Shown: one piece after another, positions 507-14,043 of the stretch
Position numbering within the stretch: the stretch's first letter is position 1
Layout of the letters: each line of letters opens with the position of its first letter
From: Candidatus Kuenenia stuttgartensis
GTDB taxonomy: Bacteria; Planctomycetota; Planctomycetia; Pirellulales; UBA1268
Assembly: GCA_945891385.1 (NCBI GenBank)
Contig: CAMDDJ010000032.1
Span: 1 to 35,706, forward strand
DNA: 35,706 nucleotides
Direction: 5' to 3'
Made by a program: the position numbers and the translations under genes
Notes under the pieces: generated by a model
The model's input: only the letters and a program-made list of their open reading frames with translations
Database searches by the model: none
What the model was told of the DNA's origin: nothing

Positions 507-1802
507 ATGGTCGTCGCAACGAACCTGCCGCGGGATCGACTCGTCGCCGAGTTGGCCGTGGCGTTTCCCGAGGCCGTGACAGAGGGCGAACCGGCGGCCG
601 CGGCAGCCCAGCCCTGTCGCGGCGGACGCCTGGCCGCGGAACAGCGTCTGGCCGCGGTCGCTCCTGCGGAGTATTCCCAGACGCGAAACTTCGTGACGGG
701 GGCGGTCTCGCGGTTGTCCCCTTGGATTCGACACGGCGTGGTGTCGCTTGCCGAGGTTCGGGACAGGGCGCTCGAGCAGGCTGGCCCTGACGCGGCGGAG
801 AAGTTCATCTCCGAGCTGGGCTGGCGAGACTATTGGCGGCGTGTGCACGCCGCCTCGGGCGATCGAATCGGTTTCGACCTGGAGGCCGCCTCCGCCCGTC
901 CGCGGGCGGCGCAGGTCGACCGCATGCCGGAGGACGTGCTCGCGGGCCGCACTGGGCTCGCCTGCATCGACGACTTCGTGCGGCGGCTCCATGCCGACGG
1001 CTGGCTGCACAACCACGAACGCATGTGGCTGGCCTCCTGGCTCGTGCATGTGCGGGGGGTTCATTGGCGGGCCGGAGCCGACTGGTTCCTGCGGCACCTG
1101 CTCGATGGCGACCCCGCCAGCAACCATCTCTCCTGGCAATGGGTCGCCGGGACCTTTTCGGCCAAGCCCTACATCTTTAACCGGGAAAACCTCGAGCGGT
1201 TCACCAACGGCGTGCATTGCCGCCACTGTGCGGTCGCAGGCCACTGCGACGTCGAGGGCGACTACGACAGCCTCGCGGCCCGGTTGTTCGTCGGCCAGGG
1301 CGGGGCCGACTTCGATGCGTCGCCGGCGGTGTCGCTGCGGCCCGCCGAACCCTGGCGACCGGCTGCAAGCCCCCGGAAGCCGCTGGTCTGGATCACGCTC
1401 GACTCGCTCTCGCCGCGGAGTCCCGCCGCGGCCGCCTGGCCCAGCGCGCCGCGGCTCTTCATCGTGGATCGGGCCTGGCTCGCCGCGGAACGGCCGGCGC
1501 TCAAGCGGCTCGTGTTCATCTGGGAATGCCTGGCCGACCTGCCGGAGGTCGAGATTCACGTCGGCGATCCGTGCCAACTCGTGCCGGCTCGGGCGGCGGC
1601 CCTGGGCTGCGATGGCATCGTGGTCGCCGACACCCCCTGCCCGCGCGTGCGCCAGGCTGCCACCGCGATCGGCGAGACGTTGCCGGTGCGGGTCGAGCCC
1701 TGGCCCAGATTCTGCGACGACTCGAAGGTTCGTGACCTCGGCCGCTTCTCCCGTTACTGGAACAAGGTCAAGCCGTCAGCCCTGCGGCCTACCGCGGAAT
1801 GA
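507..1802 (+). CDS. FAD-binding photolyase/cryptochrome-like protein with permuted domain order
   Basis: A 431-aa member of the DNA photolyase/cryptochrome superfamily. Residues 60-235 are the helical FAD-binding domain: SRLSPWIRHG at 68-77, LGWRDYWRRVH at 104-114, and a long Trp/Asn-rich stretch at 207-235 including SAKPYIFNRENLERF. Just after it comes a cysteine cluster, C238-x2-C241-x5-C247. Residues 290-405 form an alpha/beta segment (PLVWITLDSLSP, RLVFIWECL, GIVVADTPCPR) resembling the Rossmann domain that photolyases normally carry at the N-terminus. The tail at 410-425 has LGRFSRYWNKV. ATG 507 is preferred over ATG 234 because family similarity begins there. The likely role is FAD-dependent DNA repair or blue-light sensing, but activity cannot be judged from sequence alone. 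The last 22 codons and stop are duplicated at 8551-8622. Confidence 0.8.
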   Translation: MVVATNLPRDRLVAELAVAFPEAVTEGEPAAAAAQPCRGGRLAAEQRLAAVAPAEYSQTRNFVTGAVSRLSPWIRHGVVSLAEVRDRALEQAGPDAAEKFISELGWRDYWRRVHAASGDRIGFDLEAASARPRAAQVDRMPEDVLAGRTGLACIDDFVRRLHADGWLHNHERMWLASWLVHVRGVHWRAGADWFLRHLLDGDPASNHLSWQWVAGTFSAKPYIFNRENLERFTNGVHCRHCAVAGHCDVEGDYDSLAARLFVGQGGADFDASPAVSLRPAEPWRPAASPRKPLVWITLDSLSPRSPAAAAWPSAPRLFIVDRAWLAAERPALKRLVFIWECLADLPEVEIHVGDPCQLVPARAAALGCDGIVVADTPCPRVRQAATAIGETLPVRVEPWPRFCDDSKVRDLGRFSRYWNKVKPSALRPTAE

Positions 1803-1806
1803 AAGC
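1735..1806 (+). repeat. 72-nt direct repeat, left copy (3' end of the photolyase-like gene)
   Basis: This copy contains the last 22 codons and stop of the photolyase-like gene plus 4 nt. It matches 8551-8622 in the same orientation at 69 of 72 positions. Identity stops abruptly at both ends. The two copies bracket the sugar-gene block, as att-like repeats do around an integrated element. Confidence 0.85.
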
Positions 1807-1974
1807 GGCAGAAAACGGGTCGCTGCTCGTGAGCCTCGGGAGGAGCGGCCCGAGCGTCGGGAGCGGGTTTCTCGAAACGACCCGCACCCCCTTCGGTGGC
1901 GTTTCTCTCGCGTGTGCGCAGCCCGCGTCCCAGTTCGCAGTTTCCCGCCATGCGTGGGTCGCGTCCGGCACCGC

Positions 1975-2193
1975 TCAGAGCCTGTTGTGGATGTCGATCG
2001 CGGGCAGTTCGTCGGGCGAGGCTTGAACGACGTCGCGATCGTCATGGATCTGCACGAGCTCACCCCAGTCGGTGGGCGGTCCACGGGCGGGAGAGATGGG
2101 CGGAGGCTCGAGCGGTTCGCCACGATGCGTGGGGATTTTCCGGATCGGCCCCGGATCGCGGACAGGATGTCCGCAGCAACCGGAGGTTGCCAA
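1975..2193 (-). pseudogene. IS91-type transposase, C-terminal remnant A
   Basis: On the minus strand this encodes the end of an IS91-family-like transposase: GPIRKIPTHRGEPLEPPP, then SPARGPPTDW, LVQIHDDRDV, and the terminus DELPAIDIHNRL before a stop. The adjacent zinc-finger segment (CGGDIRLIAFITEP in copies B and C) is damaged here by a short deletion. Only about 70 codons remain of a protein normally several hundred residues long, with no start or catalytic domain, so it is a dead fragment. It is inverted relative to copies B and C. The family assignment rests on recall of the conserved C-terminal pattern (CxxCGGxxRxIAFI, then HLGxPxEPPP and SPARGPP), not on a search. Confidence 0.7.
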
Positions 2194-2258
2194 CAGTACG
2201 GAGGCCAGACGGATTGGGAAGCACCTGGTGCGGGCCGGGACATAGGAGCACCCGACTC

Positions 2259-2314
2259 ACGAGCCGCTCATCAGTCGGACGACGCTTGCGGAAGTGCCGT
2301 TGGCCGACCTATCC
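2259..2314 (+). repeat. short dispersed repeat, copy A
   Basis: This segment starts acgagccgctcat and ends with a core close to ttgcggaagtgcc and ctatcc. It aligns with 4639-4693 in the same orientation and, for the core, with the reverse complement of 8251-8280. It lies on the 5' side of transposase remnant A and reads antisense to it. It is probably a leftover of the mobile element's non-coding or terminal sequence. Confidence 0.6.
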
Positions 2315-2530
2315 ATCGGATCCGGGTGGCCGAGCCTCATTCGTCCATCATTCCTGCATCAGTCGTTACACTCTTCGCTGCGCGTTGGATTCGCCCCACT
2401 GCTCCAGCGCACTCGCCCATAATTTCAATCAGGGCGGCCTGCGGCACGGCGAGTGGCGTTTCCGCCCGCGAAGGCCAGCCGTCGATGCCCCGATCGACTG
2501 CCCAGTGGAGTGGGTCAAAGATCCGGAAAC

Positions 2531-3316
2531 ATGTCTGCGACGACGATACTCTGGAACGAGGCGGCGATCGGCTTCGAGCGGCTCTTCGGGGCAGCTGTCG
2601 GATTCAAGACGTGGCGGAGCCGGGGGGCGGTACTCGCCATGTCGGGCGCGCAGGCTCCTGACCTCAATTGCGGTGTCGTGACCGCTGGCGAGCACGCGCC
2701 GTCGGCGATCGGTGAAATGGCGGGCCGACTGCGGGATCGCGGACTGCCGGGGCTGGTCCTGGTCGCAGACGGTACCGGCGCGGCGGCCGACGAGGCTGCG
2801 ACCGCGGTCGGCCTCGTTCGTGCGGCCCGCATGCCGCTCATGAGCCTTCCGGCCGCAAACATTCCGGCAGAGACAGGTGCCTTCTGGGTGCGGCGGGCCA
2901 CGACCGCCGCCGACGTGACAGCGGCCAACAGGCTCATGGCGGCCGCATTTGACCTTTCCATCGAGCCCCTCCACGTGGCTTTTCCGCCGCGGCTGCTCGA
3001 GGAACCTGCCGTGGCGGTCAATATCGTGCTCGACGGCGACGAGCCGGTGGGGGCGGTGCAGACCACGATCCACGACGGCACCGTTGGGGTGTGGTCAATG
3101 GCGACGCTGCCCGCTCGACGTCGCCGGGGTGTCGCCCGTGCCGGCCTGACGTACGCGGTCGCTGAGCGGTGTCGCGCCGGCGGCCACTCCGTATTCCTGA
3201 TCGCGACCGATGCGGGCCGGCCGTTGTACGATGCCGTCGGTTTTCGCGTTGTCGACTGGTGCACCGTGTGGCTCACGCTTCCGCACGTCGCGAATAGCCC
3301 GGACGAATCAGCATGA
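2531..3316 (+). CDS. GNAT-family N-acetyltransferase
   Basis: A 261-aa protein with a C-terminal GNAT fold. About residues 116-255 carry FWVRRATTAADVTAANRLM (beta1/alpha1), GAVQTTIHDGTVGVWSMATLP (beta3/beta4), the acetyl-CoA pyrophosphate loop RRRRGVARA, and LYDAVGFRVV near the end. The N-terminal 110 residues have no domain I recognise; in some GNAT proteins such a region is a second, degenerate GNAT half. Start 2531 (MSATTILW) fits better than the in-frame ATG at 2453, whose extra residues look non-coding. The stop overlaps the next start by 4 nt (ATGA), so translational coupling with the methyltransferase is likely. The acceptor is unknown; its position suggests a sugar or small-molecule target. 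Confidence 0.75.
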   Translation: MSATTILWNEAAIGFERLFGAAVGFKTWRSRGAVLAMSGAQAPDLNCGVVTAGEHAPSAIGEMAGRLRDRGLPGLVLVADGTGAAADEAATAVGLVRAARMPLMSLPAANIPAETGAFWVRRATTAADVTAANRLMAAAFDLSIEPLHVAFPPRLLEEPAVAVNIVLDGDEPVGAVQTTIHDGTVGVWSMATLPARRRRGVARAGLTYAVAERCRAGGHSVFLIATDAGRPLYDAVGFRVVDWCTVWLTLPHVANSPDESA

Positions 3317-4119
3317 CGTCAACGAACTCCACCAAGGATTTCGGCCCGATCGCGAGCGACTACGCGTTCTTCGAGGACCACAGCACGGAGGCCCATCAGG
3401 ATCTGGCCGGCTATGCGGCGATTCTCGAAAGCATATGCGCCAGCCGCTCGAATCCTGGGCTCGTTCGCATGCTGGACTTCGGTTCCGGCCCGGGCAATTT
3501 CACGGCCAAATTCTTGAAGCTTCTCGCCTACTCGAAAAATTCTCTGTCGCTGGCGGTGGTCGAGCCCGTCGATGCGTATCGGGAGCAGGCTGTGAAATCG
3601 CTGTCACAGTACACGGCCCTGCCGATTCGGGCTTTTGCGCACGTGGAGACGTGCCCTGAGAGCCGCCTGAATGTGGTCTTGGCCAACCATGTTTTCTATT
3701 ACGTGCCGGACCTCGAGAACACGCTCTCTACGCTGCTTGCGAAACTCGCCCATGGCGGCGTGTTGATGACGAGCATCGCAGGGTTGGACAACACGCTGAT
3801 TCAGATCTGGCAGGCGTGTTTCACGATGCTCGGCAAACCCTTGCCCTACAACACCAGCGAAGACGTTCAGGAGGCCTTCGAAAAACTGGGCGTGGCAGCG
3901 ACCATGCAGAAGATTCATTACAGGCTCGAGTTCCCCGACACGGCTGAGAACAGGTTGAGCATCCTGCGATTTCTCTTGGCCGACTATCTTCGCGAGCTGC
4001 CGTCTGAGGACGTTGTCGCCTTGTTCGATCCATACGTGGCGAATTCCGGGCTGGTATCGATGCGTATCCAGCACGACCAGTTGTGCGTGGTGAAGCACGG
4101 CTATCCTGGTGCAGCGTGA
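3313..4119 (+). CDS. class I SAM-dependent methyltransferase
   Basis: A 268-aa protein with the Rossmann-type methyltransferase fold. Motif I is LDFGSGPGNF at residues 54-63, the acidic end of beta2 is VVEPVDAYREQA, and motif IV lies in LNVVLANHVFYYVPD, followed by the post-IV segment LAHGGVLMTSIAG. The N-terminus (DFGPIASDYAFFEDH) is typical of small-molecule or sugar methyltransferases. The start overlaps the GNAT stop by 4 nt. The sequence looks less GC-rich, with more A/T-ending codons than the minus-strand operon, which fits acquisition by transfer, though composition was not computed. The substrate is unknown; N- or O-methylation of a sugar made by the neighbouring genes is a guess. Confidence 0.8.
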   Translation: MTSTNSTKDFGPIASDYAFFEDHSTEAHQDLAGYAAILESICASRSNPGLVRMLDFGSGPGNFTAKFLKLLAYSKNSLSLAVVEPVDAYREQAVKSLSQYTALPIRAFAHVETCPESRLNVVLANHVFYYVPDLENTLSTLLAKLAHGGVLMTSIAGLDNTLIQIWQACFTMLGKPLPYNTSEDVQEAFEKLGVAATMQKIHYRLEFPDTAENRLSILRFLLADYLRELPSEDVVALFDPYVANSGLVSMRIQHDQLCVVKHGYPGAA

Positions 4120-4274
4120 ACTGGAATCGCAAGTGAACGGCGTCAAGGATTGCGAACCGCTCATGTGTCGATTCTCGTTCCCGGGGGGCGTTTCCTCGTC
4201 GGGTCGGAGCTCCATGGTTCCCCGAGCATGGCGAGCCGTGTGGCTGCCTGCCGGCTCGCGCTCGTGAGCAGTTC

Positions 4275-4335
4275 TGCGGCGGCGACATCCGGCTCATTGC
4301 ATTCATCACGGAACCAGGGCCGATCCGGAAAATCC
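4275..4335 (+). repeat. 61-nt perfect direct repeat, copy in B
   Basis: Positions 4275-4335 are identical base for base to 8490-8550 in the same orientation. The repeat covers the zinc-finger and following segment of the transposase tail, and the two sequences diverge immediately after it. Confidence 0.85.
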
Positions 4336-4491
4336 TCACGCACTTGGGCGAACCGCTCGAGCCACCACCCGTCTCGCCGGCCCGGGGCCCACCCGCTGAC
4401 TGGGTCGAGTTCGTGCAGATCCATGACGATCGCGACGTCTTTCAGGCGACGGATAGACGAACTGCCCGTGATCGACATTCGCAGCCTCTGA
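4275..4491 (+). pseudogene. IS91-type transposase, C-terminal remnant B
   Basis: The plus strand reads CGGDIRLIAFITEP, GPIRKILTHLGEPLEPPP, SPARGPPADW and VQIHDDRDVFQA. A single extra base near 4450, relative to copy A, then shifts the frame, and the terminus DELPVIDIRSL and stop appear in the next frame. Everything upstream of the zinc-finger CGG is missing. The first 61 nt are identical to 8490-8550. Read on the opposite strand, the segment gives a misleading open frame (DVAIVMDLHEL), a shadow of the transposase codons. Confidence 0.75.
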
Positions 4492-4638
4492 CCCGCGTCG
4501 GACACGAGGTGTCGAAGCCCCTGGAACGGCCGACGAAGACACGGTCTGCGCCGACGCGAGAAAAACGCCGTCGCTGAGGGGAAGCCGCGCGTTTCGGGAA
4601 CGCTTTGTGGGGGCCAGGAAGAACGGGCCAACTGGTTA

Positions 4639-4693
4639 CGAGCCGCTCATGAGCTCCGGCGTCGTTGCGGAAGTGCCATTGACCGGGCTATCC
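4639..4693 (+). repeat. short dispersed repeat, copy B
   Basis: This copy matches 2259-2314 along its length, with the core ttgcggaagtgccattgacc followed by gggctatcc. In this copy it lies 3' of the transposase tail and in the same orientation, unlike copies A and C. It sits 70 nt before the preferred WecD-like start, so it could also carry regulatory sequence. Confidence 0.6.
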
Positions 4694-4762
4694 TTCGCCG
4701 GGTCGTTGGCGATGAGGCAATGTTTCGGCACTCTCAGCTACAATCACGCCGACACATGGGCC

Positions 4763-5545
4763 ATGCACCGGAGAGTTCTTCGCCCCGTGGCTGATCGACG
4801 GCTCGGCACACCCGATGACGAAGCACTAGGCTTCCATGTGCTTCCCTGGGATTCGTCGCTGTTCGGGTTTCCGGTCGCGCACGTCTCGGCCGACGTCATC
4901 CACACTGGTCGCTTGCCGCGAGTTGTCGAATCGCTGCGGGCGGAGGAAGTTCGGCTCGGCTACATCTCCGTGCCGTGGAGCGATGCGGGCGCGGCCGCCG
5001 CGATCGCCCTGGTGGGCGGCAGGTGCGTGGACCGCAAGGTGCGTTTCCGGAAGGCGGTGATTGCGGGCCTGCCGAAACCCGCGGGGGTGGAGTCGGTGCT
5101 GGGCAAGCCCTGCACGGCGGACTTGGAATCGCTAGCGCTCGTGAGCGGAACCTATTCCCGGTTTCGGGCCGATCCAAGGATTCCGCCGGACTTGTTCGAG
5201 AGGCTGTATGTCGCCTGGATCCATCGAAGCATGAGCGGCGAGATCGCCGAGGATGTGCTGGTGGTTCGCGTGGAAGATCGTGTTTCGGGGATGGTCACGG
5301 TGGTGGGCGCACATGGTGACGCCATAGGCGTGATCGGGCTCATCGCGGTGCACGCCGGCCATCGCGGCAGAGGATACGGCAGGCGACTGATGCTGGCGGC
5401 GGAAGCGCGGTGCGCAGCGCACGGCGTGCCTGCGATCGAGGTGGCCACGCAACGGCGGAATGCGGCTGCCTGCGGACTGTATGCCGCCTGCGGCTACGAG
5501 GTCGTGCGTGATGAGGCCGTGTTCCATATCTGGCTCGAGCCATGA
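4763..5545 (+). CDS. wecD: dTDP-fucosamine (dTDP-Fuc4N) acetyltransferase-like protein, WecD/RffC type
   Basis: A 260-aa GNAT protein resembling E. coli WecD (RffC, about 224 aa), which acetylates dTDP-4-amino-4,6-dideoxygalactose to dTDP-Fuc4NAc. Landmarks are LPWDSSLFGFPVAHV (27-41), the YSRFRADPRIP block (131-141), GMVTV (176-180), IGLIAVHAGHRGRGYGRRL (191-209) holding the acetyl-CoA loop, and the end ATQRRNAAACGLYAACGY with Tyr240 where the family has its general acid. ATG 4763 is preferred; ATG 4712 is also possible. ATG 4607 would include the dispersed repeat and is unlikely. The stop overlaps the aminotransferase start (ATGA), and the partner enzyme identity strongly supports the assignment. 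Confidence 0.8.
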   Translation: MHRRVLRPVADRRLGTPDDEALGFHVLPWDSSLFGFPVAHVSADVIHTGRLPRVVESLRAEEVRLGYISVPWSDAGAAAAIALVGGRCVDRKVRFRKAVIAGLPKPAGVESVLGKPCTADLESLALVSGTYSRFRADPRIPPDLFERLYVAWIHRSMSGEIAEDVLVVRVEDRVSGMVTVVGAHGDAIGVIGLIAVHAGHRGRGYGRRLMLAAEARCAAHGVPAIEVATQRRNAAACGLYAACGYEVVRDEAVFHIWLEP

Positions 5546-6690
5546 CCATGATCCCGTTCAATCGTCCGTTTCTCCCGGACCGAGCGATCGGCTACATCGC
5601 GGAGGCCTATCGCTCTGGCAAGGTTTCTGGAGACGGGCTGTTCACGAAGCGATGCGAGGCGTTCCTCTCGGCCCGCTATGGCTCTCGCCGCATGCTCCTG
5701 ACCACATCGTGCACCACCGCACTCGAGCTGGCATCCCTGCTGTGCCGGATTCAACCGGGCGACGAAGTTATCCTGCCCAGCTTCACGTTCGTCTCCACGG
5801 CCAACGCCTTCGCCCTGCGCGGCGCGAAGCTCGTTTTCGTGGACTCCCTACCCGATCATCCCAACATGGATCCCGCCCGGGTCGCGGAGGTCGTGTCCCC
5901 GAAGACGCGAGCCATCGTGCCGGTCCACTATGCAGGCGTCGCCGTGGATATGAATCCCATCCTGCAGATGGCCCGGGAGGTCGGAGCGCTCGTGGTGGAG
6001 GACGCGGCACAGGCCATCGAGGCCCGCTACCAGGGCATGCCCCTGGGCACGCTCGGGGATTTCGGGGCGTTCTCGTTCCACGAAACCAAGAACATCCACT
6101 GCGGCGAGGGTGGGATGCTCGCCATCCGCGACGCGGAGCACGTCGGTCGGGCGGAGATTCTCTGGGAAAAGGGAACCAACCGCAGTGCGTTTTTTCGCGG
6201 CGAGACCGCCAAGTATGGCTGGGTGGATGTCGGATCGTCCTTCCTGCCGTCGGACATCCTGGCGGCCTTGCTGTGGTCGCAGTTGGAGGCTGTCCAGGCC
6301 ATCACCGCCCGGCGATTCAGGCTGTGGGAACGATACTTCGATGCCCTCGAGCCGTTGCGGCGGGCCGGCTGCCTCGAGCTGCCCACGGTCCCGCCGTTCG
6401 CGTCCCACAACAGCCACTGCTTCTATCTCGTCCTTCCCGATGAACGCGCGCGATCTCAGCTGATCGAGCACCTCAAGCGGCGCGACATCCTGGCAGTCTT
6501 TCACTATCAATCGCTGCACGCGAGCGCCTACTTCGCCGACAAGCACGACGGGCGCCTGATGCCCCACGCCGACCGCTTCAGCGACTGCCTCCTGCGGCTG
6601 CCACTGTTTCATGATTTTCGCGACGAGGAACAGGACCGGGTGATCGGCGCGATCCATGGCTTCTTTGGCATCGAGTCGCGGTCGGCGTAA
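5542..6690 (+). CDS. wecE: dTDP-4-amino-4,6-dideoxygalactose transaminase, WecE/RffA type
   Basis: A 382-aa PLP enzyme of the DegT/DnrJ/EryC1/StrS family, very close in pattern to E. coli WecE/RffA. That enzyme converts dTDP-4-keto-6-deoxyglucose and glutamate to dTDP-Fuc4N. Conserved stretches include MIPFNRPF, SGKVSGDGLFTKRCE, LLTTSCTTALELA, PGDEVILPSFTFVSTANAF, IVPVHYAGVA, VVEDAAQAIE (Asp154 and Gln157 at the cofactor), and SFHETKN with Lys183 as the Schiff-base lysine. KGTNRSAFFRG near the middle is highly characteristic of this subfamily. It starts at ATG 5542, overlapping the wecD stop, or at ATG 5548, which would give the MIPFN start seen in E. coli. RmlA and RmlB, which make the precursor, are not in this window. 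Confidence 0.9.
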   Translation: MTMIPFNRPFLPDRAIGYIAEAYRSGKVSGDGLFTKRCEAFLSARYGSRRMLLTTSCTTALELASLLCRIQPGDEVILPSFTFVSTANAFALRGAKLVFVDSLPDHPNMDPARVAEVVSPKTRAIVPVHYAGVAVDMNPILQMAREVGALVVEDAAQAIEARYQGMPLGTLGDFGAFSFHETKNIHCGEGGMLAIRDAEHVGRAEILWEKGTNRSAFFRGETAKYGWVDVGSSFLPSDILAALLWSQLEAVQAITARRFRLWERYFDALEPLRRAGCLELPTVPPFASHNSHCFYLVLPDERARSQLIEHLKRRDILAVFHYQSLHASAYFADKHDGRLMPHADRFSDCLLRLPLFHDFRDEEQDRVIGAIHGFFGIESRSA

Positions 6691-6716
6691 GGAACCTACC
6701 CGAGGATTGTCAGCAC

Positions 6717-8195
6717 ATGATGCAGCCCGAGACACGGATCACGCGAGCCCGGCGGCTCCTGGGCATTTTTCACAGGTGCGTGAGACGCCACATCCACGAT
6801 CCCGAACGAAGCCTTGCGCTCATCGAGACAACCGCCCAGGTCGCCTGGAGCTGCCATGCCGGCACGTTTGTGCTGCCGCAGGCCGAGAGGGCCCTCCGCG
6901 AACGTACAGACCTCGCCGATCTGGCGGCGGTGCCGGGGGATCTCGTGAGGGCGGTGGAGGGCCGGACGCTCCACGTGCTCACCGAGGCCTACGCGGTCGG
7001 CGGGCATACTCCGCTGGTAAAACGATGGATCGCTCTGCTCGACGACGAGCCGCATGCCGTCGTGCTCGTGCGACAACGCCAGCCGTTCGATCCATCCTGG
7101 GTGGTCCCGTTGAATCGGCAGGTCCCGTGGATCCATATCGAAGGCATGGGCTGCAGCCGGCGTGCAAAAGTGGCCTATCTCGCCGAGTTTTTCGGCGTTG
7201 CCAAGCGGGTGATTCTTCACATCCACCCCGATGATGCCTGCGCGGTGGCAGCCGCCTATCGCAGCCCCGGGGCTGAGATCCACTTCCTCAACCACGCCGA
7301 CCATGTCGCCTGGCTCGGCGCGGGCCTTCCGGCCGTGTGTCTCAATCTTCGGGACCGCGGCACCCGTCTTGCGGAAACCCGGCGCGGCATCGCGGCCGCC
7401 AGCTGTGGAGTGGTGCCCGTCCCGATCACCCTGCCGGCCGTGGCCGACCGCCAAGACGCCCGGCGACAGTTCGGGATCGGTAGTCACGAATGCCTCATTC
7501 TGACCATCGCGGCCAGCTACAAGTACAATCCCGTGGGAAGTCGTTCGTTGCTCGAACCGCTCGACGTCCTGCTCCGTCGACCGGACGTCAAGCTCATGGT
7601 TGTCGGAGTGGGGGCCGGACACCCCGTCTTTGGCCCGCTCGAGGAGCGGCATCCCGGCCGTGTGCTCTGTATGGGCATCGTCCCTTCGCCAGTTCTGCAC
7701 CGCGTGGCGGCCGACATCTACCTTGATAGCTATCCGTTCTGCTCGATCACGTCGATGCTGGAGAGTGCCGCGCTGGGCACGCCCGTCGTGGCCTATCAGC
7801 CTGACCTCGAGGAACTCCAGATCCTGTACAGCGAATGCCCGTGGCTACCGGCGGAGCGGTATGCAGCCCACGATGCCGAACGGCTCGTTGATATGTTGAA
7901 TGCACTCGTCGACGCTCCGTCCCTCCGGCAGGATCTGGCCGGGCACAACATCACGGGCATGCGCCGGCACCTTCCCGAGGCATGGCGAGCCGCCGTGCGG
8001 CAGCATCTGGCGCACCGATTCGCCCCCGCTCCGTGGCAAAAACCCGCCCCGCCTTTCCGTTGCGGCATGCTCGACGACATGCTTTCCGGCATCATGGGCG
8101 ATGTCCGCTGGTATGCCGATCAGGCGATGAATCTGGGCCTCGATGAGATCGGCGTCGATCAAGTCGTGCGGTGCCGAAACGCCGGTCGGCTGTGA
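6717..8195 (+). CDS. GT-B fold glycosyltransferase
   Basis: A 492-aa protein with the layout of a two-domain GT-B glycosyltransferase. The N-terminal domain includes LHVLTEAYAVGGHTPLVKRW around 86-105, with the GGHT loop typical of sugar-acceptor domains. The C-terminal nucleotide-sugar domain shows ILTIAASYKYNP, LMVVGVGAGHP, and the signature IYLDSYPFCSITSMLESAA followed by LGTPVVAY at about 338-361. There is no membrane segment. It starts 26 nt after the WecE-like stop, in the same orientation, so it is probably co-transcribed and may transfer the Fuc4NAc sugar; that substrate is inferred from context only. The sequence does not closely match WecF. Confidence 0.75.
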   Translation: MMQPETRITRARRLLGIFHRCVRRHIHDPERSLALIETTAQVAWSCHAGTFVLPQAERALRERTDLADLAAVPGDLVRAVEGRTLHVLTEAYAVGGHTPLVKRWIALLDDEPHAVVLVRQRQPFDPSWVVPLNRQVPWIHIEGMGCSRRAKVAYLAEFFGVAKRVILHIHPDDACAVAAAYRSPGAEIHFLNHADHVAWLGAGLPAVCLNLRDRGTRLAETRRGIAAASCGVVPVPITLPAVADRQDARRQFGIGSHECLILTIAASYKYNPVGSRSLLEPLDVLLRRPDVKLMVVGVGAGHPVFGPLEERHPGRVLCMGIVPSPVLHRVAADIYLDSYPFCSITSMLESAALGTPVVAYQPDLEELQILYSECPWLPAERYAAHDAERLVDMLNALVDAPSLRQDLAGHNITGMRRHLPEAWRAAVRQHLAHRFAPAPWQKPAPPFRCGMLDDMLSGIMGDVRWYADQAMNLGLDEIGVDQVVRCRNAGRL

Positions 8196-8250
8196 CGATC
8201 GAAGGACATGGCCGCAGCCGAGTTGGTATTCCACTAGCCCGGGACGGAAA

Positions 8251-8280
8251 GGATAGTCCGGTCAATGGCACCTCCGCACC
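8251..8280 (-). repeat. short dispersed repeat, copy C (inverted)
   Basis: Its reverse complement reads as the repeat core, with gcggaggtgccattgaccgg followed by actatcc, matching copies A and B. As in copy A, it lies 5' of and antisense to the neighbouring transposase tail, so A and C are mirror images. Confidence 0.55.
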
Positions 8281-8394
8281 GGTCGCTGTCACGGCGCTGG
8301 CGATCGGCAACGTCGGCATGCGGCAAGAGGCCGCCGCCGGCGGGCATGGGGGCGACGGGTACGCCACGGGAGGCTGCTGCGCCGCGAACCACGC

Positions 8395-8550
8395 GACGCT
8401 AAAGCCCCGGTCGCACGACACCTCCCGGATTGCCTGGGCGAAACTGATGGCCCGGGTGGGCGAGGAGTTTCCGCTCGAGTGCCCTTGGGTGCGGCGGCGA
8501 CATCCGGCTCATTGCATTCATCACGGAACCAGGGCCGATCCGGAAAATCC
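8395..8550 (+). pseudogene. IS91-type transposase, C-terminal remnant C
   Basis: The plus strand reads TSRIAWAKLMARVGEEFPL followed by ECP, which matches the segment just before the zinc finger of these transposases. One extra base near 8489 then shifts the frame into CGGDIRLIAFITEP and GPIRKI. The fragment is cut at 8550, exactly where the 72-nt photolyase repeat begins. It extends further toward the N-terminus than copies A and B. Confidence 0.7.
8490..8550 (+). repeat. 61-nt perfect direct repeat, copy in C
   Basis: This segment is identical to 4275-4335. Perfect identity in a dead gene fragment means either recent duplication or recombination between the copies. Confidence 0.85.
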
Positions 8551-8622
8551 ACCTCGGCCGCTTCTCCCGATACTGGAGCCAGGTCAAGCCGTCAGCCCTG
8601 CGGCCTACCGCGGAATGAAAGC
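8551..8622 (+). repeat. 72-nt direct repeat, right copy (photolyase 3' end)
   Basis: This copy encodes LGRFSRYWSQVKPSALRPTA plus E and stop in one frame, with three base changes from 1735-1806. Its right part also encodes, on the minus strand, the last codons (AFIPR, stop) of the RluA-type gene. It abuts the truncated transposase fragment on the left without a gap. Confidence 0.85.
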
Positions 8623-9303
8623 CCTTGGAAACCAGGTCCACGGAGCCCGCTGCGGCGGCGGTGCCTCGAGCGCGAGCCGATCTGCCGTGGCGGGATGCGC
8701 GAACGCGAGGGCCGCAGCGTGGAGGGCCAGCGGAACAGCCGGCGCCGGATCGCGACCGTACAGCCGGTCGCCAAGGATCGGACAGCCGAGCCAGGCGAGG
8801 TGCACCCGCAGTTGGTGCGAGCGACCGGTCAGGGGCTCGAGTTCGACGAGCGCCACCTCGCTCCCGTCGAGGATCGAGCGGGCCGTGGCCAGGATCGTCC
8901 ACCGCGTCGCCGCTCGCCGCCCAAGGACCGGATCGACGCGGTGCCGGGGCGGCCGATCGACGTCGGCGGCCAGCGGCAGATGGAGTTCGCCGGCGGGCTG
9001 CGGCGGCCGGCCCGCCACGATCGCCAGGTAGGTCTTGGCGACGTCGCCTCGCTCAAACGCCCGGCCGAGCGTGGCTCGCGCCTCGGGCGTGCGGGCGAGC
9101 GCGAGCAGCCCGGACGTGTCGCGGTCGAGTCGATGGACGGCCTCGAGCGGCCCGAAGTCGGCCGCCAGCCTGTGGGCGACGTCGGGCGGATCGAGCGGCG
9201 TCCGGGCCGGCACGCTCGGCATGCCCGAGGGCTTGTCACAGACGACGAGGTGCAGATCGGCGAAGACGACCCGCGGCGGCTCCAGGGTCGTGCCGTCGTT
9301 CAC
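8605..9303 (-). CDS. RluA-family RNA pseudouridine synthase
   Basis: A 232-aa protein of the RluA/RluC/RluD family, which isomerises uridine to pseudouridine in rRNA or tRNA. The catalytic motif is HRLDRDTSG at 57-65 (Asp60), preceded by VVCDKPSGM (20-28) and followed by AKTYLAIVAG (89-98) and LEPLTGRSHQLRVHLAWLG with GDRLYG. There is no N-terminal S4 domain, so it is a short RluA-like form. The GTG at 9303 is chosen because it overlaps the preceding stop (GTGA) and gives the normal N-terminus; the frame stays open to 9474 but that part lies inside the upstream gene. The C-terminus AFIPR is encoded inside the 72-nt repeat. It is the last gene of the operon and an unexpected housekeeping member; target RNA unknown. 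Confidence 0.85.
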   Translation of the reverse strand: MNDGTTLEPPRVVFADLHLVVCDKPSGMPSVPARTPLDPPDVAHRLAADFGPLEAVHRLDRDTSGLLALARTPEARATLGRAFERGDVAKTYLAIVAGRPPQPAGELHLPLAADVDRPPRHRVDPVLGRRAATRWTILATARSILDGSEVALVELEPLTGRSHQLRVHLAWLGCPILGDRLYGRDPAPAVPLALHAAALAFAHPATADRLALEAPPPQRAPWTWFPRAFIPR

Positions 9304-11285
9304 AGCATGCCCAAGAGCGAGACCCAGCGACAGAGCAGGTCGGACGGGATGTCGCCGAACGGCTCCGCTGGCAGGAGTCCGACCGCGTAGCCCGCTGCGG
9401 CGAGCCGGTCCCGATCGGCTTCGATCCGCTGCCGCGTGGCTTCGTCGCCGCCGGGGCCGAGCAGCAGCCACCAATCACGGTCGGGCGTCGCGTCGGCCAC
9501 CGTGGCCAGTCGGGGAAGCCCACCGCCGACGAGCGCTACGCCGCGGGCTCCGGTGCCGAGCCGCTCAGCGACCAGCCAGGCGAAGGCGGCTCCCGCGCCG
9601 CTGCCAGCCACGCCCACCCGACGCGGATCGACGGGTCGCCGGCCATGCAGAGCGGCCAGACTGCGCAGCACCGGATCGATGTCGCCGCGGCTCCAGGTGG
9701 CGGGATCGGCCGACCCCGGCACGAGCACGGCCACGCCCGATTCGGCGGCGGCCTGCTGCCAGGCCCGGGCTTCGGCCTCAGCGATCGGCCCCTGAGGCGG
9801 CCCCAGCCAGATGAGCACGCCCATCGGCGAGGTGCCGGCGGGGATCACGGCCAGCGTCGGCTCGGCCGCCTCGGCCGCCTGCAGTTTCACGACCGGCGCT
9901 GCCCTCAGCGGGCCAGCCAGTGGGTCGATGCCGCGAGCCGGCCGGGCCAAACCGGCGACCGGCAGATCGGCTGGTGGCGTCGTCGTCTCGATGCCCACGC
10001 TCGTCTCCCGACCGGCGCGGCGAAAGGTCATGCTGATCTTTCCACCCGGCAGGAGTCCGGCGAGCATGCCGGCCAGGTCGTCGGGAGCATGGGTCGGCGT
10101 GGCTGGGCCGTCTTCAAGGGCGACGGCGGTCACGATGTCGCCGGGCTCGAGGCCGGCCCGGTCGGCTGGACTTCCGGGCCAGATCCAATCGAGTTCGATG
10201 CCGCCGGGCTCCGGCGTCGGGCCGTCCACCGGCACAACGCCGATCACGGCGCGACGCCAGGGTGGCAGGCGGTCGACGAGCGTCGCCTCAACGGTCAACT
10301 CCTTCGGCGTTTCACCGGCTGTCTCGCGGGAGAGGGTGATCGAGATTCGATCCCCGGCATACCGAGGGGCGACGGCATGCTTGGCATCGGCAATTCGGGT
10401 GATCGGCCGATCATCGATGGAGACCAGGCGATCTCCGGGCTCGAGCCCGGCAGCCGCCGCCGGAGACCCGGGCCGCACGGAGCCGACGATGGGCTGCCCA
10501 TTGATCGGATCCTGGGAGCGGTAGGCGATGCCCAGCATCCCGGGAGCGAGCGTCTCACCCCGTTCGAGCCGGGGCAGGACGGCGAGCACATCTTCCAGCG
10601 GCACTGCGAAACCGATGCCCGCATCGTAGAGTTCCGTTCCCTCGGTCAGCCCGGCGGTGTCGGCCGGCAAGGGAGCGAGCACGCCGATCACCCGGCCGTC
10701 GAGATCGACGAGCGGCCCGCCGTAGTTCATGGGCGAGACCGCCGCGTCGGTCTGCACCGCCTTGCCCCAGGCTCGGTTCGTGGCCGAGACGATGCCCACC
10801 GCGACGCTCGGGGAGGTGGCTGTCCAGCCGCGGCCCACGGCGATCGCCCATTGGCCTGGGGCGAGGTCTGCGCGGGCCGCGGGTTCGAGGGGCGGTGTCG
10901 CCGGAAGATCGGTGACGGCCACGAGCACGAGGCCACGGGAGCGGTCGCGACCGAGCACGCGGGCGACCCGCCGGCCGCCGTCAGCGAGAACCACCAGGCT
11001 TTCTTCGACGTCGGCTGGAATCGCGAAGTCGGTCGTCAGCACCCGCTCAGGGGCGACGACGATCCCCGTCGAGGGGCCCTCGCCCGGTCGCAGCTCGCCG
11101 GAGGCCGCCACGGCCGACACCGCCAGCGGTTCGATCCGCACGACTGCCGGAGCAACCCTGGCCACCGCCGCCTGGAAGGCTCGCTCCTCGGACAGCGTGG
11201 GTTCCGCAGCCGACCCCAGGGCTGGCACGAGCGCGATGGCGAGCAGGCTGGTGACGGCTTGGAGGCAGGGGCTTCGCGGGATCAT
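9300..11285 (-). CDS. secreted HtrA-like pseudoprotease with two PDZ domains and an alpha/beta-hydrolase-like domain
   Basis: 661 aa. A signal peptide covers about 1-27. A trypsin-like HtrA fold spans about 35-240, a PDZ about 248-335 (LGIAYRSQD, VRPGSPAAAAGLEPGDRLV), and a second PDZ about 345-435 (WPGSPADRAGLEPGDIV). A C-terminal domain at 478-661 resembles an alpha/beta hydrolase (VLIWLGPPQ, RRVGVAGSGAGAAFAW, WWLLLGPGGD). By alignment with the neighbouring active HtrA the triad is gone: His becomes Phe87 (LTTDFAI), Asp becomes Gly118 (RSRGLVL), and Ser becomes Tyr188 (MNYGGPL). It is therefore likely a binding or scaffold protein. The hydrolase-like elbow around Ser562 lacks the classic GxSxG and may also be inactive. 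The start overlaps the previous stop (ATGA). Confidence 0.75.
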   Translation of the reverse strand: MIPRSPCLQAVTSLLAIALVPALGSAAEPTLSEERAFQAAVARVAPAVVRIEPLAVSAVAASGELRPGEGPSTGIVVAPERVLTTDFAIPADVEESLVVLADGGRRVARVLGRDRSRGLVLVAVTDLPATPPLEPAARADLAPGQWAIAVGRGWTATSPSVAVGIVSATNRAWGKAVQTDAAVSPMNYGGPLVDLDGRVIGVLAPLPADTAGLTEGTELYDAGIGFAVPLEDVLAVLPRLERGETLAPGMLGIAYRSQDPINGQPIVGSVRPGSPAAAAGLEPGDRLVSIDDRPITRIADAKHAVAPRYAGDRISITLSRETAGETPKELTVEATLVDRLPPWRRAVIGVVPVDGPTPEPGGIELDWIWPGSPADRAGLEPGDIVTAVALEDGPATPTHAPDDLAGMLAGLLPGGKISMTFRRAGRETSVGIETTTPPADLPVAGLARPARGIDPLAGPLRAAPVVKLQAAEAAEPTLAVIPAGTSPMGVLIWLGPPQGPIAEAEARAWQQAAAESGVAVLVPGSADPATWSRGDIDPVLRSLAALHGRRPVDPRRVGVAGSGAGAAFAWLVAERLGTGARGVALVGGGLPRLATVADATPDRDWWLLLGPGGDEATRQRIEADRDRLAAAGYAVGLLPAEPFGDIPSDLLCRWVSLLGML

Positions 11286-12316
11286 GGCCGCCCTCCTGCG
11301 GCTGGCTGGCGAACCGCCGCCGGAGGCCGCGGGCCGAGGTCGAGTTCCACCAGACCGCCCCCGCGGATGACGACGAATGTGAGTGGATCACCCACCGCGA
11401 GCCGCCCTACCGCCTGCTCCACGGCCGCCCGCGTCGTCACCGAGAGCGGACCGACCGCGATCAGGAGATCGTCTGCCCGGAGCCCGGCGCGTTCGGCGGG
11501 CGAACCGGGGTCGATCGACTCGACAAACGGTGGCGTGCGGTCGAGCAGGTCGGGCACGAGCACGGCTCCGAGCAGCCGCAGGTCGAAGGGTTCGACGGGC
11601 TGGGCCGGCCCGGCCGCGACGCCTCCGAGGATGGTGTCGCAGCCGCGGCAGAGTTCCGCGGCGGGGATCGCGTAGTTGAGCCAGATGCCCGCCGTCGTGC
11701 TGCGCAGTTCCTTGCCCAGCATGCCCACGAGCCGTCCGCCGGAGTCGATCAGGGCACCCCCGGGTGAGCCCGGATTGTTGGTGGTGCAGTCGAGCACATA
11801 GACCTCGCCTTGAAACGGCGCCTCGGCGGCTCCCCGTCGGGCCTGGAGCGGCACCACGGCGGCGATCACGCCCCGCTGGGCCGTGACCCGTTCGTCGCCG
11901 ACGGCCACGCCGAACATGTTCGATAGCGCGATCACCCGGGTGCCGGTGGCCGCCAGCGGCCCCGCGGGATCGAGCGTGAACGCGGGCAGATCCTCGGCGG
12001 TGATCTCGAGCAGGGCGAGTTCCCGCTGGGGGTCGATGCCCACGAGCCGGGCCGCGTACCGCCGGCCGTCGTCGAGCACGCAGTCGACCTCGCCGGCATC
12101 GAGGACCGTGCTGGCCACCGTGAGGATGCGGCCATTCGGCGCGATCAGCAGACCCGTCTGGTAGCCCTCGAGACCACGGAAGCCGCCCGACCCGTAGAGC
12201 TTCACCACCCTCCGGGCCGCGTCGGCGATCACCTGCTGCGGGCCGGACTCACCACCCTGGGTGATCGCGGCGACAAGCGTTGCCCAGGCGGCCACGCAGA
12301 GCAGGCGGTGATTCAT
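11282..12316 (-). CDS. secreted HtrA-like pseudoprotease with one PDZ domain
   Basis: 344 aa. A signal peptide covers about 1-20. A trypsin-like fold spans about 28-225, and a C-terminal PDZ about 235-325 (VESIDPGSPAERAGLRADDL). Compared with the adjacent intact HtrA, all three catalytic positions are changed: His to Ser69 (ILTVASTVL), Asp to Glu99 (DPQRELALL), and Ser to Pro185 (NNPGSPGGAL). The fold-defining glycines and the NPG turn are kept, so the domain is probably folded but not proteolytic. It is coupled by ATGA overlaps to both neighbours. An alternative chemistry cannot be excluded, since Ser184 lies next to the lost nucleophile position. Confidence 0.8.
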   Translation of the reverse strand: MNHRLLCVAAWATLVAAITQGGESGPQQVIADAARRVVKLYGSGGFRGLEGYQTGLLIAPNGRILTVASTVLDAGEVDCVLDDGRRYAARLVGIDPQRELALLEITAEDLPAFTLDPAGPLAATGTRVIALSNMFGVAVGDERVTAQRGVIAAVVPLQARRGAAEAPFQGEVYVLDCTTNNPGSPGGALIDSGGRLVGMLGKELRSTTAGIWLNYAIPAAELCRGCDTILGGVAAGPAQPVEPFDLRLLGAVLVPDLLDRTPPFVESIDPGSPAERAGLRADDLLIAVGPLSVTTRAAVEQAVGRLAVGDPLTFVVIRGGGLVELDLGPRPPAAVRQPAAGGRP

Positions 12317-14043
12317 GGCATCGCCCCCGCCGGCTCGACCGACTCGATGAGAAACCTGCCAAACAACTCGGGGCCGCGATGGACCGTCATCGCGCCCGGC
12401 TCGTTCTCGGTGGGATGCGCGAAGCGAATCTCGCAGGGATCGGCCTCGGGCGATGTCCAGAGATCGATCCAGCAGAGACGGCCGGCCGCATCGACGGCGA
12501 ATCGGGCTTCGACCCCGGCGACCGCCGTCTCGAGCACGTCCACACGTTCGCCGTCGGCCGGATCGATGTGCCAGGGATCGCGGGCCGCAGTGCCGAAGTA
12601 CGTCGTGCTGCCGACGGCGGCTGGGCCCTGCGTCACCAGCTGCCGCCAGACCGCGAGGGCCGCGAGCAGGCCGCCGCTGCCCGGAGGCACCGGGTTCGCA
12701 TCGAGCGGTCCGTCGGCGTCGAGCACCGATGTCCCGGTCGGCAGGTCGATGGTGGCCTGGGAGTCGGAAAGTTCGAGGCGAAACTCAGCGCCGTCGGCCA
12801 GGCGGCCGGCCAGCGTCCATGGGCCGCTGCTGCGGCTTGCGTGCCGGTCGGCGATCGTTCGGGCCACTCGGTCGCGCTGGAGTCGGTTGAAGTGGTAGTT
12901 CACAAAGCCCGGCCGCGGCTCATAGACGCCGCGGATCGGCTCCGGGAGCGGGGTTTCCCCGGGGTTGGGTCCCTGCTCTTCGCCCGGTGGTTCGGCCCCG
13001 CCGGCCACGAGCCGGGCGAGGTCGGCAGGCGCATGCACGCCCGCGAGCCGGACGAGCATCTGCTCCTGGCGGCCGTCCCGCCGGTAGACGAGCGGCACCT
13101 GCCAGCCTGCGGGAAGCGTACCCAGCACGTTTTTGAAGGCATTGACGGTGCGGACGGGACGGCCGGCGAGGGCCACGATCTCGTCGTCATACTGAAGCCC
13201 GCGCCGCCAGGCGTCGGAGGATTGAAGGATGTCAGACACCACCACGCGGCCGTCGGCGGCGGTGCCCACGGTGGCTCCGAGCGTGGCATGGTCGCAGAGC
13301 CGGCCGCCCATGAGGCAGCCGAGAAAATTGCGGAGCTGGTTGGCCGAGATCGCGTAGCCGGCCCCGACGTTCACCCGGCCGCGTTTCTCGAATGAGGCCC
13401 GGCCATTGACGCCGATCAGGCGACCCACCGCATCAAAAAGCCCGCCTCCGGAGTTGCCGGGATTGATCGCGGCATCGACCTGGATGCAGTCGGTGTATTC
13501 GAGCAGCGTGCCGGCCGGCTCCTGGTAGCGGTGCGTACCCGAGACGATCCCCGCGCTGATCGATGGCACGAGATCGGTGGCCAGGAGGAAGGGATTGCCG
13601 GCGGCGAAGCACCAGTCTCCCGGTTCGACGGCGTCGCTGTCGGCGAGTGGCACATGCGGAAAGTCGTTTCGGCCGAGCAGCTTGACGAGGGCCACGTCGC
13701 CGGTGGGGTCGAGGCCCACGAGGACGGCGTCATAGAGGCGGCCGTCGGCCAGACCGCAGGTCATCGCCACGCCGGCCGGCTGCACCACGTGGAAGTTGGT
13801 CAGGGCCCAGCCGTCTGGTGCAATGAGCACGCCCGAGCCGCCCCCCGCTTCCCCTGCAAAGATGGCAACGGCGGCGGCCGATGCCCGGCGGATCGCGGCA
13901 ATCCGCTCCGCCTCAGCGGCCCGGACCTCGAGGGGTACGGCCGCGGCTGCCTGGCCACCCATCGGCAGCCCGCCGACGAGCGCCGCCACAGCGGCCCAAG
14001 CCGGCCCTATCCGTCGCAGCCAGGATTGCACCGCGTCGCTCAT
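12313..14043 (-). CDS. HtrA/DegP-type serine protease with PDZ domain, triad intact
   Basis: 576 aa. The N-terminal export signal is about 1-36. The trypsin-like domain (about 50-240) carries a complete triad: His85 in LTNFHVVQ, Asp116 in DPTGDVALV, and Ser198 in AAINPGNSGGGLF. A PDZ-like domain follows at about 255-335 (VVVSDILQSSDAWRRGLQYDDEIV). The last 240 residues form a region I do not recognise, apart from a likely beta-rich segment with a DPWHIDPADGERV stretch. ATG 14043 overlaps the upstream stop (ATGA); the frame runs open much further upstream, but that part overlaps another gene. It probably performs proteolysis or chaperoning of envelope proteins, and the two downstream inactive homologues may be its partners or substrate adaptors. 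Confidence 0.85.
   Translation of the reverse strand: MSDAVQSWLRRIGPAWAAVAALVGGLPMGGQAAAAVPLEVRAAEAERIAAIRRASAAAVAIFAGEAGGGSGVLIAPDGWALTNFHVVQPAGVAMTCGLADGRLYDAVLVGLDPTGDVALVKLLGRNDFPHVPLADSDAVEPGDWCFAAGNPFLLATDLVPSISAGIVSGTHRYQEPAGTLLEYTDCIQVDAAINPGNSGGGLFDAVGRLIGVNGRASFEKRGRVNVGAGYAISANQLRNFLGCLMGGRLCDHATLGATVGTAADGRVVVSDILQSSDAWRRGLQYDDEIVALAGRPVRTVNAFKNVLGTLPAGWQVPLVYRRDGRQEQMLVRLAGVHAPADLARLVAGGAEPPGEEQGPNPGETPLPEPIRGVYEPRPGFVNYHFNRLQRDRVARTIADRHASRSSGPWTLAGRLADGAEFRLELSDSQATIDLPTGTSVLDADGPLDANPVPPGSGGLLAALAVWRQLVTQGPAAVGSTTYFGTAARDPWHIDPADGERVDVLETAVAGVEARFAVDAAGRLCWIDLWTSPEADPCEIRFAHPTENEPGAMTVHRGPELFGRFLIESVEPAGAMP

What the first reader, a model, noticed from the sequence alone, without database searches (positions are those of the whole stretch)
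1735..8622. Sugar-gene block bracketed by 72-nt direct repeats made from the 3' end of the photolyase-like gene
The last 22 codons, stop and 4 nt of the photolyase-like gene (1735-1806) recur at 8551-8622 in the same orientation with 3 mismatches and sharp boundaries. Between them lie five sugar-related genes and three transposase remnants. The right copy also encodes the last codons of the RluA-type gene on the other strand. An ancestral locus with photolyase and RluA genes converging and overlapping by 14 nt would therefore explain both copies. This is what an integrated element at a gene 3' end looks like, but no integrase is present.
Basis: partly seen in the sequence, partly recalled or inferred. 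Interest (0 to 1): 0.75.

Follow-up and report, generated by a model that had tools for sequence, protein, structure and literature searches.

The report
Sugar-gene island duplicating a gene end
A bacterium picked up a block of foreign sugar-modifying genes exactly where two neighbouring genes meet, and the insertion left a second copy of one gene's tail that keeps both neighbours intact; similar scars at a few other genes in the same genus hint at a repeated way of gaining DNA.

Summary
Confirmed: 1735-1806 recurs at 8551-8622 (69 of 72 identical), with no third copy in the held genome. Relatives indicate an insertion. Of 24 family genomes with the photolyase-like gene (PL) and RluA on one stretch, 20 have them converging with gaps of -83 to +25 nt, two about 220 nt, two about 1.75 kb; elsewhere they are often apart. 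The glycosyltransferase is in none of 21 other genus genomes. The block is compositionally foreign. It is probably a two-step accretion of IS91-family remnants, a GNAT-methyltransferase pair, and a WecD-like/WecE/glycosyltransferase operon found in that order elsewhere. No integrase appeared among the ORFs scanned. A like scar occurs at cytochrome/thiC in this genome, at yjbQ in a congener (native order seen in one genome only), and less clearly at a fourth gene. Four of five copy boundaries fall within 6 nt of a stop codon; the four repeats share no core. Best explanation: insertion anchored by homology in the gene end, joined illegitimately at the other side, displacing the resident tail. 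An integrase in trans is the main rival. No donor, island-free strain or reads were available.

The parts
519..1802 (+). Photolyase-like gene (FAD_binding_7); the ORF opens at 234, residues from 519 on were used as query
   Evidence: PF03441 87.3 bits; match in 21 of 22 genus genomes, own included
1735..1806 (+). Left 72-nt copy: last 22 codons, stop and 4 nt of the photolyase-like gene
1828..2157 (-). IS91-family remnant in minus orientation (transposase C-terminus and tail), its outer end missing; 21 nt from the left 72-nt copy
2256..2327 (+). Fragment like the outer end (oriIS-like) of the IS91 family
   Evidence: similar to 4638-4703, 80%
2453..3316 (+). GNAT acetyltransferase
   Evidence: PF00583 3.3e-7
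3313..4119 (+). SAM-dependent methyltransferase
   Evidence: PF13489 4.1e-13; in 2 of 72 family genomes at E <= 1e-30, own included
4275..4700 (+). IS91-family remnant: transposase C-terminus to outer end, truncated on its left; includes the 61-nt repeat 4275-4335
4607..5545 (+). WecD-like GNAT (ORF as listed; homology to relatives starts near residue 62)
   Evidence: NF008212 79.8 bits, below its cut-off of 219
5542..6690 (+). WecE, dTDP-4-amino-4,6-dideoxygalactose transaminase
   Evidence: NF008687 513.8 bits against cut-off 375; PDB 4piw E 2.6e-118
6717..8195 (+). Glycosyltransferase-like protein
   Evidence: weak PF13692, 15.1 bits against 27; 2 of 4 plasmid homologues annotated glycosyltransferase
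8249..8550 (+). IS91-family remnant: inverted outer end 8249-8281, then transposase C-terminal part cut off at 8550; includes the 61-nt repeat 8490-8550
8551..8622 (+). Right 72-nt copy, joined to the native RluA 3' end
8605..9474 (-). RluA-type pseudouridine synthase; its stop and last five codons lie in the right copy
   Evidence: PF00849 3.3e-29

Best explanation
Well supported: a 6.7-kb foreign block lies in what is, in many relatives, a convergent and overlapping PL-RluA junction, and PL is whole on the left and RluA whole on the right because 72 nt spanning the overlap are present twice. The block contains IS91-family remnants and two cargo modules. Inferred: DNA carrying a PL 3' end followed by cargo entered the cell, paired by homology with the resident PL gene, and was joined at its other end illegitimately (homology-facilitated illegitimate recombination), or came as a circle and integrated by a single crossover. 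The left copy is then wholly or partly incoming and the right copy is the displaced resident gene tail. Because the two genes overlap, only insertions that duplicate the overlap leave both usable, so selection keeps just these. The IS91 elements are the likely source of the cargo blocks and of one junction. The wecD-like/wecE/glycosyltransferase operon probably arrived second, since it lies between two truncated direct IS91 copies that share an exact 61-nt stretch. The cargo probably serves dTDP-Fuc4NAc synthesis and transfer for a surface glycan.
For: Junction in relatives: 19 of 19 genomes with both genes on the stretch held, gaps -83 to +25 nt, 14 overlapping; one search adds five congeners (+19, +221, +222, +1726, +1779). 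Glycosyltransferase in 1 of 22 genus genomes at E <= 1e-10; methyltransferase in 2 of 72 family genomes at E <= 1e-30; own genome counted in both. GC 64.9% against 70.2%; tetranucleotide distance 0.271 against 0.127-0.149 for seven backbone windows. Operon in the same order in another planctomycete MAG (65/80/73% identity) and in Geothrix rubra. Like geometry elsewhere: a cytochrome-like gene's tail three times between that gene and thiC, which are neighbours in 10 of 14 other genus loci held; a yjbQ tail in G064, with G068 showing the tail joined directly to what follows it. Repeat identities of 94.5-98% fit two alleles. Boundaries relative to stop codons are -1, 0, +4, +6 and +50 nt, as expected if homology ends where a donor gene ends. 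No common core. All three PL differences give residues seen in orthologues; by chance about 0.08 (0.42 cubed).
Against: No donor genome with PL followed by this cargo and no island-free sibling was found; the nearest PL orthologue is 70% identical, so a mosaic PL could not be tested. PL and RluA are not neighbours in all relatives: 17 of 38 other family genomes with PL lack a close RluA hit beside it. The native yjbQ order rests on one genome (G068), whose yjbQ is internally deleted; the six full-length yjbQ loci in other genomes (G059 twice, G069, G043, G003, G000) have other sequence downstream. In G050 neither copy is shown to belong to a whole gene. The right join shows no clear microhomology by eye. 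Such recombination is rare in experiments: 3x10^-10 per recipient in E. coli (PMC3240628 abstract). The comparison of IS91 stretches with controls is weak: 4 of 47, the window included, against 0 of 20. The differences between copies could be later mutations. All loci are draft assemblies.
Confidence: 0.5

Rival explanations
1. Site-specific integration at the gene 3' end by a tyrosine-type integrase supplied in trans or since lost; the 72-nt copies are attL and attR.
For: Repeats at a gene 3' end that restore the gene are the classic look (recalled); three successive copies at the cytochrome/thiC locus resemble tandem att sites. Precedent: GIsul2 and its ISCR-related CR2-sul2 unit move between att sites at the 3' end of guaA (PMC9376610, passages).
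Against: No integrase among the family hits for the ORFs scanned. Four unrelated gene tails share no core, so several integrases would be needed. Two modules with internal IS91 scars are not one unit.
Confidence: 0.23
2. Crossover between two IS91-type insertions at slightly different places in two alleles (one just after PL, one inside PL), which duplicates the interval between them.
For: IS91 pieces lie 21 nt from the left copy and directly at the right copy; Y2_Tnp matches occur in 21 of 22 genus genomes.
Against: The edge remnants in the window are in opposite orientations (minus at 1828-2157, plus at 8249-8550), so one simple crossover between direct copies does not give this.
Confidence: 0.1
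3. Transposition with an unusually long target duplication, as reported for IS1549 and IS1634.
For: Variable repeats of 8-514 bp are reported for these two elements (PMC2266710, passages); 72-206 nt falls in that range.
Against: No IS1634-type transposase among the family hits for the ORFs scanned; the remnants are IS91-family, which is not known for target duplication (recalled); most ends lie near stop codons; copies are 2-6% diverged.
Confidence: 0.05
4. Assembly artefact at short repeats.
For: Draft genome of 150 contigs; the exact 61-nt repeat ends at the right join, so the inner module could be a mis-threaded loop.
Against: The 72-nt copies differ at 3 positions and their longest identical run is 42 nt; both outer flanks match the gene order of relatives; analogous structures occur in other genomes.
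Confidence: 0.06

Closest known systems
Displaced ('orphan') gene 3' ends ascribed to homology-facilitated illegitimate recombination, as proposed for Vibrio cholerae T6SS immunity arrays and Rhs loci (PMC5361080, passages)
   Same: Incoming DNA anchored by a homologous stretch; resident 3' end pushed downstream; repeated events build arrays
   Different: Here the anchor gene looks like a housekeeping-type gene with nearly unchanged sequence, the cargo is sugar genes, and IS91 pieces sit at the joins
GIsul2 / CR2-sul2 (ISCR2) at the 3' end of guaA (PMC9376610, passages)
   Same: IS91-related unit bracketed by repeats at a gene 3' end, with three att sites
   Different: GIsul2 has an integrase and a 19-bp attB; here no integrase was found among the ORFs scanned and the repeats are 72-206 nt at unrelated genes
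IS91/ISCR rolling-circle elements with adjacent cargo
   Same: Transposase C-terminus and tail; cargo between truncated copies
   Different: Only remnants here; long direct repeats are not a known IS91 product (recalled)
wecD-wecE genes for dTDP-Fuc4NAc
   Same: WecE above its curated cut-off
   Different: WecD-like protein below its cut-off; the glycosyltransferase has no sequence match in the PDB at E <= 0.01

Membership tests
Integrase-type genomic island | Direct repeats at both ends, one at a gene 3' end | tested here: met
Integrase-type genomic island | Absent from relatives with an empty site | tested here: met
   only at the level of other species
Integrase-type genomic island | Integrase gene | tested here: not met
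   no integrase family hit among the island ORFs scanned; not every short reading frame was scanned
Integrase-type genomic island | Common att core among similar insertions | tested here: not met
   longest shared strings 6-9 nt, reached by 8-82% of shuffles
Integrase-type genomic island | Excised circular form | not testable with these tools
   needs reads or PCR
IS91/ISCR element | Transposase C-terminal sequence | tested here: met
   plasmid matches, covering 56-61% of the query, include genes annotated IS91 and ISPps1 family transposase (15 of 77 records listed); first part of the peptide lies in a G064 ORF with a Y2_Tnp match
IS91/ISCR element | Intact Y2 (PF04986) domain in the window | tested here: not met
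   the only own-genome match is a fragment on contig C10
IS91/ISCR element | Conserved oriIS end | tested here: inconclusive
   a repeated end found by alignment; the name oriIS is assigned from memory, from its place behind the transposase 3' end
Homology-facilitated illegitimate recombination | One homologous border and one non-homologous join | tested here: inconclusive
   the left side is contiguous with the PL gene and the right join links IS91 to the PL tail, but that the left side came in by homology is not shown
Homology-facilitated illegitimate recombination | Donor allele identified | tested here: not met
   no genome with PL followed by this cargo seen
WecE (NF008687) | Score above curated cut-off | tested here: met
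   513.8 against 375 bits

The most novel reading that the evidence does not exclude
In this genus IS91-type rolling-circle elements habitually capture a short tail of a neighbouring gene and deliver their cargo as a circle that lands by single crossover in the intact copy of that gene, so that islands accumulate at gene 3' ends, without an integrase and without harm to the gene, each marked by a 70-200-nt displaced tail.
Probability: 0.13. Interest if true: 0.7.

Novelty: new variant of a known kind. Interest (0 to 1): 0.42.

Why it matters
If right, it shows how foreign operons can be placed between tightly packed or overlapping genes without breaking them and without a dedicated integrase. 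It also gives a searchable scar: a displaced gene tail, with its homology ending near a stop codon, next to IS91 debris. That scar makes the route testable across genomes.

Tried and rejected
Long-target-duplication and integrase models were considered and kept as rivals. The inner 61-nt repeat was first read as a second target duplication; rejected, because the order is 61+right half ... left half+61, which suits two truncated direct copies or a circle, not a duplication around an insertion. A one-ended rolling-circle model putting oriIS at the right join was rejected: by comparison with the copy at 4275-4700, 8550 lies about 360 nt before the outer end. Direct repeats in L143 (IS91 itself), L144 (part of a gene, not its 3' end), L154 (intergenic hairpins), L196 (partly IS91) and L200 (no gene end seen) were dropped as not gene 3' ends; so were the five pairs in four control stretches (L206, L209, L210 twice, L211). 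These were judged from ORF lists and sequence, not from curated genes. One control stretch (L206) held 71 nt of IS91-like sequence. The repeat scan of other own-genome IS91 stretches found no gene-tail pair on C10, C55, C2, C12 or C88; C98 and C18 were not examined. In G064 and G065 another gene lies between PL and RluA, and in G053 it lies beside PL; no long second PL tail was found in G064, G065, G061, G066 or G068. PL loci L060, L082 and L084 were not used in the residue test. The GC3 value for WecD was taken in a wrong frame and is not used. Literature: photolyase with attB, integrase and genomic island found 0 papers; planctomycetes, IS91, transposase, horizontal gene transfer and genomic island (at least four of five) matched 114 papers, of which the 8 listed were seen as titles and abstract starts and none was on this.

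Full report
Observation. The 72-nt direct repeat is real, at the stated coordinates, with 69 of 72 positions identical, and a search of the held assembly gave these two places only. The left copy is the last 22 codons, stop and 4 nt of a photolyase-like gene (FAD_binding_7). The right copy carries the stop and last five codons of an RluA-type gene on the other strand.

Gene order in relatives. Of 59 other family genomes searched, 38 have PL at E <= 1e-90 and 36 RluA at E <= 1e-60; 21 have both. In 20 of these 21 the two are adjacent on one contig; in G053 they lie on different contigs. The other 17 genomes with PL have no RluA hit at that level, and weaker RluA hits seen there lie on other contigs. 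One search read the ends mechanically in the 19 genomes where both genes were then held on one stretch: all are convergent, with gaps from -83 to +25 nt, 14 overlapping. Five congeners fetched later have gaps of +19 (G066), +221 (G061), +222 (G068), +1726 (G064) and +1779 nt (G065); the last two hold another gene there. Two more congeners with both genes (G053, G063) have them on separate contigs, as does G030, whose RluA hit is weak. The bases after the right copy continue like the RluA end of G003. So the compact junction is common and both outer flanks look native.

The block. GC is 64.9% against 70.2% in the sequence to the right; tetranucleotide distance is 0.271, against 0.127-0.149 for seven equal-sized backbone windows. 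The glycosyltransferase is found in none of the other 21 genus genomes (E <= 1e-10) and the methyltransferase in 1 of 71 other family genomes (E <= 1e-30). WecE passes its curated cut-off (513.8 against 375 bits) and is close to solved WecE structures. A pattern scan of a public genome collection returned four loci with a related glycosyltransferase. In two of them, a MAG labelled Planctomicrobium piriforme (65, 80, 73% identity) and Geothrix rubra (47, 69, 51%), the WecD-like, WecE and glycosyltransferase genes occur in the same order; Geothrix campi has WecE and the glycosyltransferase; the fourth has only distant WecE relatives. The first GNAT and the methyltransferase gave no hit in these four stretches. 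This points to two modules acquired separately, probably for dTDP-Fuc4NAc on a surface glycan (inference).

Transposase remnants. The three remnants belong to one dispersed family in this genome. Its coding part is the C-terminus of IS91-family transposases: plasmid matches include genes annotated IS91 and ISPps1 family (15 of 77 records listed, 56-61% of the query covered), and the first part of the peptide lies in a 557-residue ORF of genome G064 that has a partial Y2_Tnp match and itself looks broken. Y2_Tnp occurs in 21 of 22 genus genomes; in this genome only a fragment was found. The copy at 4275-4700 lacks its left part and the copy at 8249-8550 lacks its right part; they overlap by an exact 61 nt, bracketing the wec operon, and the second ends exactly where the right 72-nt copy begins.

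Recurrence. On contig C5 the 3' end of a cytochrome-c-like gene recurs twice downstream in direct orientation (206 nt at 95%, 143 nt at 97%), and the outermost copy abuts an IS91 remnant and faces thiC. Nineteen other genus genomes have the gene; of the 14 for which a locus was returned, 10 have thiC directly downstream, one has about 1.3 kb between, and three held under 350 nt downstream. Tail fragments were found only in this genome; G056 has a second, 43% identical match. In G064 the yjbQ tail (146 nt, 94.5%) brackets 6.0 kb containing the broken IS91 ORF. In G068 a yjbQ with an internal deletion runs directly into the sequence that follows the second copy in G064, but six full-length yjbQ loci in other genomes, this one included, have other sequence downstream, so the native order there rests on one genome. 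In G050 two copies of a gene tail (102 nt, 98%) end exactly at a stop codon around what reads like a toxin-antitoxin pair; neither copy was shown to belong to a whole gene. Scanning 47 stretches with IS91-type sequence (581 kb, the window included) gave these four; 20 control stretches (369 kb) gave none, though they had five other direct-repeat pairs. That contrast is not strong by itself; the better link is the contact of IS91 with a copy (0-5 nt) in three of the four.

Mechanism. The copies end at -1, 0, +4, +6 and +50 nt from stop codons, they are 2-6% diverged, and the four tails share no core. This is what is expected if incoming DNA carried its own version of the gene followed by foreign DNA, paired by homology in the gene, and was joined illegitimately at the other end, leaving the resident tail displaced. 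The process is described for competent bacteria and proposed for Vibrio arrays (passages, passages, abstract). A circle integrating by single crossover gives the same product. All three differences between the PL tails give residues seen at those positions in 41 orthologue stretches; random changes do so with a chance of 0.42 each, so about 0.08 for three. This is weak support that both copies evolved as photolyase tails. It does not exclude mutation after a simple duplication.

Rivals. An integrase acting in trans remains possible, with GIsul2/CR2-sul2 as precedent (passages). Long target duplication (passages), IS91-IS91 crossover and misassembly are less likely.

Verdict. The insertion at a conserved convergent junction is well supported. 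The exact mechanism is inferred. The case is a variant of known recombination-made islands, made more interesting by like scars at a second locus of this genome and, less firmly, in two congeners.

Noticed in passing
L097 (own genome C5:6000-19000), 6523-6665, 7902-8107, 12330-12535: Three direct copies of a cytochrome-c-like gene's 3' end between that gene and thiC, with a giant ORF with Ig-like domains, a GNAT gene with a small upstream gene (toxin-antitoxin-like by eye) and an IS91 remnant between.
   Followed up: yes
L162 (G064 C144), 4286-4431 and 10445-10590: yjbQ 3' end duplicated around 6 kb that contains a broken IS91-type ORF.
   Followed up: yes
L197 (G050 C94), 2324-2425 and 3369-3470: A 102-nt gene tail ending exactly at a stop codon, present on both sides of what reads like a VapBC pair.
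   Followed up: partly
L078, L079, L058 (G065, G064, G053): Between PL and RluA, or next to PL in G053, lies what reads like a secreted phosphoesterase gene on the minus strand, without a long second PL tail in G064 and G065.
   Followed up: partly
L095 (own genome C55:1-12000), 117-699, 2121-2623, 8883-9297: Three internally deleted IS91 derivatives built from shared blocks 96-99% identical, suggesting recent movement of non-autonomous copies.
   Followed up: no
window 9300-14823 (-): Three consecutive large minus-strand ORFs; the first has trypsin-like and PDZ domains, and the next two read similarly but were not scanned.
   Followed up: no
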